Source: Geothrix paludis (GTDB lineage: Bacteria > Acidobacteriota > Holophagae > Holophagales > Holophagaceae). Taken from it: DNA of 64,000 bases. Position numbers and translations under genes: made by a program. Position 1 is the first letter of the stretch. Each line of letters opens with the position of its first letter. The stretch covers positions 310,001 through 374,000 of the forward strand of contig NZ_JAKZLC010000002.1 in the NCBI RefSeq assembly GCF_022808815.1, written 5' to 3'. Below are positions 6,899-10,427 of this stretch, in pieces. The notes beneath the pieces are model-generated. The model did not search any database. It was not told the DNA's origin and saw nothing but the letters and a program-made list of their open reading frames with translations.

Positions 6899-7429
6899 TC
6901 AACCCTGCGGCGGGGCGGCCTGTGCGGGGGTGGCGCGCCCGGCCTTCGCGCGCCGCTTCGGGAGGGCCACCAGGGTGCCCCGGCAGGTCGGGGCCCCGCA
7001 GTGGCAGGGGAACAGCTCGCGACTCAGGGCGCGAGAGAGGCGCGCCGAGCCGACAGACTGCAGCTGGTAGTCGAAGGTCAGCTCGGCCCCGGCCGGAATC
7101 TCCTGCATGGCGTAAACGTAGGGCGTCCCATCGAAGATGTAGATCTCGCAGTTGGGCTCGCAGCTGTGGTTGACGAAGCGGGCGTCGTTGCCCCCCTCCG
7201 CGCCGTCGATGGCCGTGTCCTCGTCCAGGTTCAGGACGTACGTCAGCGTCCGCTCACCCCGCCCGGCCGCGGCCAGCAACTCGGCCTTGGCCACGCGCCG
7301 CCCGGCATATTCGAAGACCCGCGTCCCCCTCGGGATCGGACGCTTGGCGAAGACCCCGGTGCCGTGGATGGCCGAGGCCTGGACCCGGATGAAGTCCCTG
7401 TCCGGTCCTGGGGCTTTGGGACTCGGCAT
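6899..7429 (-). CDS. SET-domain protein (putative lysine methyltransferase)
   Basis: 176 aa. The SET core is recognisable: an N-terminal GTGVFAKRPIPRGTRVFEYAG, the pseudoknot motif ARFVNHSCEPNC (SAM-binding NHS), a second motif ELTFDYQ and a post-SET-like Cys cluster CHCGAPTCRG. Eukaryotic-type SET proteins of this size occur sporadically in bacteria; targets may include small basic or ribosomal proteins, but none can be named here. Start selected at the ATG with AGGAGG 5 nt upstream; the longer reading frame to 7522 lacks such a site. C-terminal tail is Ala/Pro/Lys rich. Divergent from the lipoprotein gene at 7668. Confidence 0.85.
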   Translation of the reverse strand: MPSPKAPGPDRDFIRVQASAIHGTGVFAKRPIPRGTRVFEYAGRRVAKAELLAAAGRGERTLTYVLNLDEDTAIDGAEGGNDARFVNHSCEPNCEIYIFDGTPYVYAMQEIPAGAELTFDYQLQSVGSARLSRALSRELFPCHCGAPTCRGTLVALPKRRAKAGRATPAQAAPPQG

Positions 7430-7667
7430 GCCACCTCCTGGAGGCGCGTGGCGGAGTGGATGGAAGCGGCCGTCAGAACGGCGTGGGGTTGATCGGCCGG
7501 AGGAGACCCCCATCATGATCACCCCCTGTCTGTGTGAACAGGAAATTCAGGTGGTCCCGGTCGATCTCACGGGGCTGGCCCGCCGGCGATCCACGGACGT
7601 AGAATCCGGTCATCCGAAGTACGACAGAAGCCCCCTTCCCTTCAGAGCATTCCACGCCGAGGATGCC

Positions 7668-9011
7668 ATGCCCGCGCCCCAGCCCCGACTGACGCCCTCA
7701 CGGATCCTGTGGCCCGCCGCGCTCGCGGGGCTCCTGGCGGCCTGCTCCAGCCGCCCGCCGGTGGTGCAGCCGGCCCCGGCGCCAACCCCGACGCCCGCTC
7801 CGGTGCCCACTCCGGCGCCCCCGCCACCTCCTCCTCCGCCTGCGCCCTCCGCCCACCCCCCCAGGCCCGAGCCCTTGGCGGAGGCCGAAGCATCCCGGCC
7901 ACCCGAGGACCGCCGCATGGCGGAAAGGGCCGAGATGCCCCGGCGAGCGGCTTCGTCCCGCCCGTCCCTGCCCCCTCCCCGCCCCACGCCCGTGGATGCC
8001 AACCCCAACGTGGACCGGGACCAGGCCTATGCCCGCGTATCGGTGATGTTCGGCACGGACCGGAAGCTTGACCCCCGCACCGGCAGCTTCGGCGGAGGCC
8101 GCGGCGCCGGGATTGCCTACGGCGAGGTCACCGTCAGCGTCCCGCATGGGCACAAGACCGGCGAGATCGAGGCCCCGTCCCTCTGGAAGCTGGAGTTCCG
8201 CGAGGACCCCCGGAAGCACATGGCCATCCTGGACTGGACCCCCCACTCCCGGATGGGCTTCCTGAACCGGGTGAAGGCGCGGGTTCAGGCGAAGGGGGCC
8301 TCGGGATCGAGCTTCGTGTTTGTCCACGGCTACAACGTGGCCTTCGACGACGCCGCCCGGCGCACGGCCCAGATCACCTACGACCTGGACTACCGCGGCG
8401 TGCCCGTGTTCTACAGCTGGCCCTCCCAGGGCACCCTCCAGGGCTACACCACGGATGAGAACAACGCCCAGTGGAGCGAGGCGAACCTCAAGAAGTTCCT
8501 GGTGGATTTCGCCCAGAAGAGCGGCGTGACGGACATCTACCTCATCGCCCACTCCATGGGCAACCGCGTCCTCACGGGCGCCCTGCGCCAGGCCTTCGCG
8601 GAACAGCCGAAGCTCAAGGGCCGCTTCAAGGAGATCATCCTCACCGCCCCGGACATCGACGCGGAGATCTTCAAGCGGGACATCGCCCCTGCCCTTGCGG
8701 CGGGATGCAACCGCATCACCCTCTATGCCTCGGATGGCGACAACGCCCTCCTGGCCTCCAAGAAGGTCCACGGCTACCCGCGGGCCGGCGACACCGCCGA
8801 AGGCATCGTGGTGGTGCCGGGCATCGAGACCATCGACGCCTCGGGCCTGGACACCAGCTTCCTGGAGCACTCCTACTTCGCCACGGCCCCGCCGGTGATC
8901 AGCGACATCCGCCGCGTCCTGCTGGACGGCCTCCGCGCCGCCCGCCGCGGCCTGGAGCTGCGCACGGCAGGCGGGGGGAACTACTGGAAGCTGAAGGCCG
9001 CGAAGCCGTGA
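7668..9011 (+). CDS. Alpha/beta-hydrolase lipoprotein (DUF900-like)
   Basis: 447 aa. Lipoprotein signal with LLAACSS, a very Pro/Ala-rich spacer (about residues 30-110), then an alpha/beta-hydrolase of the DUF900 type: VMFGTDRK start, SFVFVHGYNVAF (oxyanion region), nucleophile elbow LIAHSMGNRVL (Ser), an Asp in the APDIDAEIF segment and a His near the end (EHSYF). Members are membrane-tethered hydrolases of unknown substrate, sometimes near envelope-stress genes. The 238-bp gap to the divergent SET gene holds no clear gene. Start is the ATG directly before the signal; no strong Shine-Dalgarno sequence is seen. Confidence 0.82.
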   Translation: MPAPQPRLTPSRILWPAALAGLLAACSSRPPVVQPAPAPTPTPAPVPTPAPPPPPPPPAPSAHPPRPEPLAEAEASRPPEDRRMAERAEMPRRAASSRPSLPPPRPTPVDANPNVDRDQAYARVSVMFGTDRKLDPRTGSFGGGRGAGIAYGEVTVSVPHGHKTGEIEAPSLWKLEFREDPRKHMAILDWTPHSRMGFLNRVKARVQAKGASGSSFVFVHGYNVAFDDAARRTAQITYDLDYRGVPVFYSWPSQGTLQGYTTDENNAQWSEANLKKFLVDFAQKSGVTDIYLIAHSMGNRVLTGALRQAFAEQPKLKGRFKEIILTAPDIDAEIFKRDIAPALAAGCNRITLYASDGDNALLASKKVHGYPRAGDTAEGIVVVPGIETIDASGLDTSFLEHSYFATAPPVISDIRRVLLDGLRAARRGLELRTAGGGNYWKLKAAKP

Positions 9012-9030
9012 GGGGCCGCCCAGCCCACCA

Positions 9031-9672
9031 TCAATGGGATTTGAGGGCCGTCGCGCGGTCGAACATGAACAGCTTGCGATCAAAGTCCCGGTTGGTGCTG
9101 TTCATGTCCCGCAGGGGCTCCTCCTCGTAGTCGGCCAGGGCCTTCATCCGGTCATCGGGATCATAGGCGAACCGCGTGGTGAAGTAGGCCCGCGTCAGCT
9201 TGGCCTTCGCCTTCGCCAGGAGCTTGGCCTTCCACGTGGCGTAGGGCACGGGCCGGTCGAAGAGCGAGGGATCGAGGACCTGGACCGTCGGGGTCTTGCC
9301 CTCCCTGACGAACACGATGGGTGCGACGTGGTAGGTCAGGCCCACCTCGCCGAAGCGCGAGCTGTCCACGAAGAGCTCACCCTCCACCCAGGCCTTGGCC
9401 GCCGTCACGCCCCGGTCATCGAGGATGCGCACCATCTTGTGGGCCCGGGCGTAGTTGCCGTCCAGCAGGAACCCGTGGGGGATGTCCGACCGCGCGGCCA
9501 GCTCGGCGAAGAGATCCCGCGCCTCCTGCGGCTCGATCACGGAGACGGTCACATGCTGGCCGTTGTCCGGGGAATCCAGGATCTGCGTGGGTCCCGGGTA
9601 GGAGCGTGACCCTTGGGCCACGGCGACAAGCCCGATCTGGAGGGCCAGGACGAGGGAAAGGCGCAGGATCAC
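9031..9672 (-). CDS. Protein-glutaminase-like secreted protein with Asn at the catalytic Cys position
   Basis: 213 aa with a signal peptide (LSLVLALQIGLVAVAQ). The core matches the Chryseobacterium protein-glutaminase family: LDGNYARAHKMVRIL corresponds to the enzyme motif DGCYARAHKM, GLTYHVAPIVFV carries the conserved His (about residue 115) and VLDPSLFDRPV the conserved Asp (about residue 134). The catalytic Cys is replaced by Asn73 (codon AAC), so hydrolysis by the usual Cys-His-Asp mechanism is not expected. It may be an inactive homologue that binds protein, or use another chemistry. Start is GTG with GGAG upstream; a longer frame to 9822 has no signal peptide. It follows the trihaem lipoprotein gene on the same strand. 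Confidence 0.7.
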   Translation of the reverse strand: MILRLSLVLALQIGLVAVAQGSRSYPGPTQILDSPDNGQHVTVSVIEPQEARDLFAELAARSDIPHGFLLDGNYARAHKMVRILDDRGVTAAKAWVEGELFVDSSRFGEVGLTYHVAPIVFVREGKTPTVQVLDPSLFDRPVPYATWKAKLLAKAKAKLTRAYFTTRFAYDPDDRMKALADYEEEPLRDMNSTNRDFDRKLFMFDRATALKSH

Positions 9673-9761
9673 GGCGGGCTCCGAATCAGGATGGACGAGG
9701 AAATGGAAAGACCCGTCCCGCCCCCTGAACCCGGGGTGGGATCGAAGGTGGCGTCCCCGCG

Positions 9762-10427
9762 TCAGCTCTTGTGGGCGTGGACCCGGGCGAAGAGCCCCGC
9801 GTCGGCCTTCGCGCCGTGGCACTTCCGGCAGAAGTCGAGGGTGGGCAGGACCAGCCCCGCGGCCTTGGCCGCCGCCAGGTTCTTCATGACGCCCATGGCC
9901 TTGTAGTCGGCGCCGTTACCATGGCAGGCCTCGCAATCGAGGCCTTTCTTCGCGTGGGCCGAGGCGGACCAGGAGTCGTGCTGGACGCGATGGCACATCT
10001 TGCAGGCGCTGGCCCCCACCGCCGCGTGGCCGTTGTTGGCCATGGAGGGCATGGGGCTCGCGACGGCGGGGGCGGGCGCCGGCTTGGCGGCAGGCGCCGG
10101 GGCCGCGGCGGGCGCCGGAGCAGGCACGGGGGCCGGCGCGACCGCAGGCGCGGGAGCCGGTGCTGGCGCAGGAGTGGGCGTGACCGCTGGAGCTTGCGCG
10201 GGAGCTGGCGCGTTCGCGGCGGTCTTCGGGGCCGTCTCGGCGGCCTTGGGAGCCGGGGCCGCTGGCTCCGCCTTCGCCCCGGCGGTGGCCGGCTGGGAGG
10301 AGGGCTGGGCCGCGGGCGCGCCAGTGGCCGGAGTTGTGGCCGGCGTCGTGGCCGGAGCCGGCGCCTCCTTCTCCGCGCAGGCCAGCAGGCAGGCAAGCAT
10401 CAGGGCAGGCAGGGCCAATCGACGCAT
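9762..10427 (-). CDS. Trihaem c-type cytochrome lipoprotein with Ala/Pro-rich linker
   Basis: 221 aa. Lipoprotein signal (LMLACLLACAEKE), a linker of roughly 110 residues made almost only of Ala, Pro, Thr and Val, then a compact haem domain with three CxxCH motifs: CKMCH, CEACH and CRKCH. The layout suggests a tethered haem head that can swing between redox partners in the periplasm or at the cell surface. Located 25 bp downstream of the S9 peptidase gene and upstream of the glutaminase-like gene on the same strand; functional linkage not evident. No close named family; cytochrome assignment secure from the motifs. Confidence 0.85.
   Translation of the reverse strand: MRRLALPALMLACLLACAEKEAPAPATTPATTPATGAPAAQPSSQPATAGAKAEPAAPAPKAAETAPKTAANAPAPAQAPAVTPTPAPAPAPAPAVAPAPVPAPAPAAAPAPAAKPAPAPAVASPMPSMANNGHAAVGASACKMCHRVQHDSWSASAHAKKGLDCEACHGNGADYKAMGVMKNLAAAKAAGLVLPTLDFCRKCHGAKADAGLFARVHAHKS

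What the first reader, a model, noticed from the sequence alone, without database searches (positions are those of the whole stretch)
9031..9672. Protein-glutaminase homologue with Asn in place of the catalytic Cys
The secreted protein contains LDGNYARAHKM where protein-glutaminase has DGCYARAHKM, and keeps the His (GLTYHVA) and Asp (VLDPSLF) at about the same spacing as the known Cys-His-Asp triad. The codon is AAC; changing TGC or TGT to AAC needs at least two base changes, so a single read error is unlikely. It may be a pseudoenzyme, for example a substrate-binding or inhibitor protein, or an unrecognised variant chemistry. Its gene follows a trihaem lipoprotein gene.
Basis: partly seen in the sequence, partly recalled or inferred. 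Interest (0 to 1): 0.72.

Follow-up and report, generated by a model that had tools for sequence, protein, structure and literature searches.

The report
Secreted protein-glutaminase lacking its catalytic cysteine
A small lineage of soil and sediment bacteria (Geothrix and a relative) keeps a secreted copy of a protein-deamidating enzyme in which the essential active-site cysteine, and a tryptophan close to the catalytic histidine, have been replaced; it is most likely a maintained non-enzymatic binding protein.

Summary
Confirmed. ORF 9031-9672 (-), GTG start, 213 aa, signal-peptide-like N-terminus, belongs to PF18626 Gln_deamidase_2 (E 6e-20, 71.8 bits, cut-off 25). Asn73 (AAC) falls in the column of the nucleophile of protein-glutaminase (Cys156 in the pro-enzyme); His115 and Asp134 keep the triad's places. 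The mature protein has no Cys at all. It is not a sequencing error: all five Geothrix genomes that carry the gene have Asn, and the only other Holophagaceae member has Ser, a one-base intermediate between Cys and Asn. All 15 other members compared (Acidobacteriota, one Sinorhizobium and two Streptomyces plasmids, two PDB proteins) have Cys. New here: a Trp three residues before the His, invariant in those 15, is lost in the same lineage (Leu with Asn, Phe with Ser), while the other columns conserved in over 80% of Cys members are kept. dN/dS is about 0.1-0.4, so the gene is maintained. It is accessory: a clean 755-bp presence/absence segment, and its cytochrome neighbour is not conserved. Most likely a secreted pseudo-deamidase that binds protein through the old pocket; its ligand is unknown. 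Altered chemistry is not excluded. Structure prediction failed (pLDDT 41), so pocket geometry is inferred from sequence alone.

The parts
9031..9672 (-). secreted PF18626 (Gln_deamidase_2) protein with Asn in the catalytic Cys column, 213 aa, GTG start
   Evidence: GTG start and an upstream GGAG present in all six relatives
9613..9672 (-). signal-peptide-like N-terminus (VILRLSLVLALQIGLVAVAQ)
   Evidence: sequence itself; similar hydrophobic N-termini in all six relatives; no signal-peptide predictor was available
9223..9519 (-). Gln_deamidase_2 domain (residues 52-150)
9454..9456 (-). codon AAC, Asn73, in the column of the catalytic Cys
9337..9339 (-). Leu112, in the column of the Trp that is invariant in 15 of 15 Cys-bearing members
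9328..9330 (-). His115, triad His column (retained)
9271..9273 (-). Asp134, triad Asp column (retained)
9013..9767 (.). presence/absence segment of about 755 bp holding only this gene; absent at the same site in several other Geothrix
9762..10427 (-). upstream neighbour: trihaem (3 x CXXCH) lipoprotein-like cytochrome; not a conserved partner
7590..9011 (+). convergent downstream neighbour: DUF900 alpha/beta hydrolase, flank of the indel (start codon approximate)

Best explanation
It is a maintained, secreted pseudoenzyme derived from a protein-glutaminase. Step 1 (shown): the domain is homologous to protein-glutaminase, and the nucleophile Cys has become Asn; a sister genus shows the Ser state that lies between them. 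Step 2 (shown): a Trp three residues before the His, otherwise invariant, changed in the same lineage, while His, Asp and nearly all other strongly conserved columns were kept. Step 3 (follows from the known Cys-His-Asp mechanism): without a thiol no gamma-glutamyl thioester can form, so ordinary Gln deamidation should be lost. Step 4 (inferred): the kept cleft and the lineage-specific tail bind Gln-bearing protein or peptide segments outside the cytoplasm, the protein acting as a binder, scaffold or shield rather than a catalyst. Step 5 (inferred): the benefit is conditional, because few species carry the gene and it is lost or gained as one cassette.
For: PF18626 at 71.8 bits; the Holophagaceae profile matches the Cys-bearing profile at hhalign probability 99.7%; a profile including this clade finds protein-glutaminase structures at E 1e-37 to 4e-33. 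Cys in 15/15 other members, but Asn in Geothrix and Ser in G053; Trp in 15/15 others, but Leu/Phe here. No Cys in the four Asn proteins counted. Triad His and Asp and all other columns kept by over 80% of Cys members are retained. dN and dS (NG86) of 0.031/0.134, 0.072/0.278 and 0.328/0.879, i.e. dN/dS about 0.1-0.4. The clade is monophyletic at 100/100 with the Ser member outside the Asn members. No pro-region of about 110 aa of the kind that keeps protein-glutaminase inactive (pro-region lengths from PMC9396377). No other PF18626 gene in the genome.
Against: No activity or binding data. The strict retention of His and Asp is more than a pure binder needs. The AF2 model had pLDDT 41, so the pocket was not seen. 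Lack of a pro-region is not diagnostic: Cys-bearing G138 and G762 also lack one.
Confidence: 0.72

Rival explanations
1. An active enzyme with altered chemistry: the remodelled site (Asn or Ser with His-Asp) catalyses another reaction, for example Ser-His-Asp hydrolysis in G053 and a general-base hydrolysis or lyase reaction with Asn as a polar or oxyanion residue in Geothrix.
For: His115, Asp134 and the ARAH motif are strictly kept, and Cys and Trp changed in the same lineage, which looks like remodelling rather than decay. Ser in G053 could itself act as a nucleophile. Purifying selection.
Against: Asn is not a usual nucleophile (general knowledge); no new candidate nucleophile was seen near the site; no precedent in PF18626 was found in the held literature.
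Confidence: 0.13
2. A decoy or immunity protein: it binds and shields the targets of Gln-deamidating effectors of competitors, or binds the effectors themselves. (A specific form of the binding-protein reading.)
For: PF18626 domains occur in likely delivered effectors: a PAAR fusion in G762 and a very large Streptomyces plasmid protein. Accessory single-gene distribution.
Against: No effector or secretion gene was recognised beside it in the neighbourhoods seen, and the genome has no other PF18626 gene.
Confidence: 0.1
3. A decaying remnant (early pseudogene) or a sequence error.
For: Nucleophile lost and patchy distribution.
Against: Intact, with start codon and Asn conserved in five Geothrix genomes, and dN/dS well below 1.
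Confidence: 0.03

Closest known systems
Protein-glutaminase of Chryseobacterium proteolyticum (EC 3.5.1.44; PDB 2zk9, 3a54)
   Same: same Pfam domain, secreted, ARAHKM / YHVA / DPSLF motifs, His and Asp of the triad
   Different: Asn instead of the catalytic Cys, Leu instead of the Trp before His, no pro-region of about 110 aa, no cysteines, different C-terminal tail
PDB 8z3i (protein glutaminase domain-containing protein)
   Same: best sequence match with a solved structure
   Different: has Cys (DGCYARAHMM) and Trp (IAWRYHVAP)
PAAR-PF18626 fusion in acidobacterial genome G762 (L024), a probable T6SS effector
   Same: same domain
   Different: keeps Cys and Trp, has a PAAR domain and no evident signal peptide
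Catalytically dead papain-like/transglutaminase-like proteins (human menin, EPB42, FBXO21; PMC10318531)
   Same: precedent in the same superfamily for proteins without catalytic activity that serve as scaffolds or binders
   Different: other families, eukaryotic, with known roles

Membership tests
PF18626 Gln_deamidase_2 (domain family) | score above the curated cut-off over the whole model | tested here: met
   71.8 bits against 25, model 2-105 of 106; G. oryzisoli and G053 relatives also far above
Protein-glutaminase EC 3.5.1.44 | catalytic Cys of the Cys-His-Asp triad | tested here: not met
   Asn in all Geothrix members, Ser in G053
Protein-glutaminase EC 3.5.1.44 | triad His and Asp | tested here: met
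   H115 and D134
Protein-glutaminase EC 3.5.1.44 | NCBIfam equivalog NF040782 cut-off | tested here: not met
   52.4 bits against 250
Protein-glutaminase EC 3.5.1.44 | N-terminal pro-region of about 110 aa | tested here: not met
   about 30 aa between the signal-like segment and the domain
Protein-glutaminase EC 3.5.1.44 | deamidation of protein-bound Gln | not testable with these tools
   needs an assay
Papain/transglutaminase-like fold | three-dimensional fold and superposed site | tested here: inconclusive
   AF2 model pLDDT 41.4; fold inferred from sequence homology to 2zk9 and 8z3i only
Pseudoenzyme | nucleophile lost while the protein is maintained by selection | tested here: met
Pseudoenzyme | no catalytic activity | not testable with these tools
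   needs an assay

The most novel reading that the evidence does not exclude
A lineage of secreted PF18626 proteins has exchanged the thiol nucleophile (Cys to Ser to Asn) and the nearby Trp together while keeping His-Asp, giving a new non-thiol chemistry on the protein-glutaminase fold.
Probability: 0.12. Interest if true: 0.75.

Novelty: new variant of a known kind. Interest (0 to 1): 0.48.

Why it matters
Protein-glutaminase is an industrial food enzyme, and its domain recurs in probable bacterial effectors; no Cys-less branch was found in the held literature. The Cys (other families and phyla), Ser (sister genus), Asn (Geothrix) series, paired with Trp, Phe and Leu, is a natural mutational path. 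It makes the conversion of enzyme to pseudoenzyme, and the part the Trp plays in catalysis, directly testable by swapping two residues.

Tried and rejected
Link to the cytochrome gene: rejected, since the neighbours differ in G. oryzisoli (after a pntAB-like pair, by sequence reading) and G053 (after a class V aminotransferase-like gene, by sequence reading), and many Geothrix have the cytochrome without this gene. Phage origin or defence: no PHROGs, PADLOC, phage or viral-contig relatives. Structure prediction with the only sequences allowed (four close relatives) failed, so no fold search was run; relatives from the genome search were not handed to the predictor because its stated rule does not list them. 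Weak hits were not counted: L014 (G224) is below the cut-off, and L071 (G340) is an unrelated long ORF with a chance YARAHKT. A regulator of an active paralogue in the same genome: none there. A wider scan of other phyla was not possible beyond plasmids, phages, viral contigs and the PDB.

Full report
Observation. The minus-strand ORF 9031-9672 encodes 213 residues from a GTG codon. The GTG start and an upstream GGAG are present in all six relatives. The N-terminus looks like a Sec signal peptide (sequence reading; no predictor available). Pfam gives one domain, PF18626 Gln_deamidase_2, E 6.1e-20; NCBIfam's protein-glutaminase equivalog is hit but far below its cut-off. Among solved structures the best matches are 8z3i, 2ksv/2zk9 and 3a54-3a56; a family profile reaches 1e-37 for 8z3i and 3e-33 for 2zk9. 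In these alignments Asn73 sits on the catalytic Cys (DGCYARAHKM against DGNYARAHKM), His115 on the triad His and Asp134 on the triad Asp. The triad of protein-glutaminase is Cys156-His197-Asp217 (PMC4214742).

Real and lineage-specific. The window lies in a Geothrix-like genome; relatives found by name are Geothrix sp. BP11, G. terrae SG184 and G. oryzisoli SG189. Of 77 Holophagaceae genomes six carry the domain: five of the same genus, all with Asn (AAC), and one of another genus, with Ser (AGT). Cys TGY to Ser AGY to Asn AAY is two single-base steps, and the middle state exists. Elsewhere in Acidobacteriota, on a Sinorhizobium plasmid and on Streptomyces plasmids, all clear members read have Cys. 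With the two PDB proteins that is 15 of 15.

Second change. The same comparison shows that a Trp three residues before the catalytic His is also 15/15 in Cys members, and is Leu in the four Geothrix rows compared and Phe in G053. Apart from position 66 (Phe in 12 of 15, His/Tyr here), the other columns with 75% or more conservation keep the family residue: Gly72, Arg76, Ala77, His78, Lys93, Leu100, His115, Val116, Ala117, Pro118, Asp134, Pro135, Pro141, Trp147 and others. The two fully invariant columns that changed are thus the nucleophile and a residue close in sequence to the His. The Asn proteins counted contain no Cys at all, so no displaced thiol can substitute.

Maintained, accessory gene. 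NG86 values within the clade run from dN 0.031/dS 0.134 to dN 0.328/dS 0.879 for the window protein, so the protein is under purifying selection. A tree puts the five Holophagaceae rows together at 100/100 with the Asn members forming a group that excludes the Ser member (98/95); deeper joins in that tree are unsure because of long branches. In the four closest Geothrix the gene sits between the 3' ends of a convergent DUF900 hydrolase gene and a trihaem lipoprotein gene. In close relatives such as G004 the two flanks abut, so a 755-bp segment (9013-9767) is present or absent. The tree of the neighbouring S9 peptidase gene shows carriers in two separate groups, each with a non-carrier beside it, which fits loss from a common carrier or transfer at one site; which of the two is not settled. 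In G. oryzisoli and G053 the gene lies elsewhere. The cytochrome is therefore most likely a chance neighbour.

Interpretation. The Cys-His-Asp mechanism of protein-glutaminase needs the thiol (established knowledge). With Asn there, Gln deamidation by that route should be lost. The pattern of intact fold motifs, kept His/Asp, pocket changes in one lineage, a secretion signal and selection fits a secreted pseudo-deamidase that binds protein through the old cleft. Shown: homology, residue changes, conservation, selection, accessory distribution. Inferred: loss of activity, binding role, location. Altered chemistry is a real minority possibility because His and Asp are strictly kept. A decoy against PF18626 effectors is a possible specific role, suggested by a PAAR-fused member and a very large Streptomyces plasmid protein, but no neighbourhood evidence supports it.

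Limits. The AF2 model from four close sequences had pLDDT 41 and was not used. The survey covers sampled Acidobacteriota genomes, plasmids, phages, viral contigs and the PDB; other phyla could not be searched, so 'only in Holophagaceae' holds for what was searched. Catalytically dead papain-like and transglutaminase-like proteins are known in other families (PMC10318531), so this is a new branch of a known kind of event.

Noticed in passing
L024 (acidobacterial genome G762), ORF at about 1123-1983 +: PAAR motif fused to a Cys-bearing PF18626 domain: a probable type VI secretion effector with a protein-glutaminase domain.
   Followed up: partly
L060, L061 (Streptomyces plasmids): PF18626-like domains inside very large proteins; one is annotated over 26 kb as 'protein-glutamine glutaminase family protein', the other is not annotated.
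   Followed up: partly
window 6899-7522 (-): Bacterial SET-domain protein (PF00856, E 8e-22) with a Cys-rich post-SET-like end.
   Followed up: no
window 9559-9573 (-): SPDNG motif (residues 34-38), N-terminal to the domain and identical in all six Holophagaceae relatives; it contains an Asn-Gly pair, a sequence prone to spontaneous deamidation.
   Followed up: no
window 9762-10427 (-): The cytochrome lipoprotein has a long Ala/Pro-rich linker between its N-terminal Cys and the three CXXCH motifs; a relative is present in 19 of 47 genomes of the genus.
   Followed up: no
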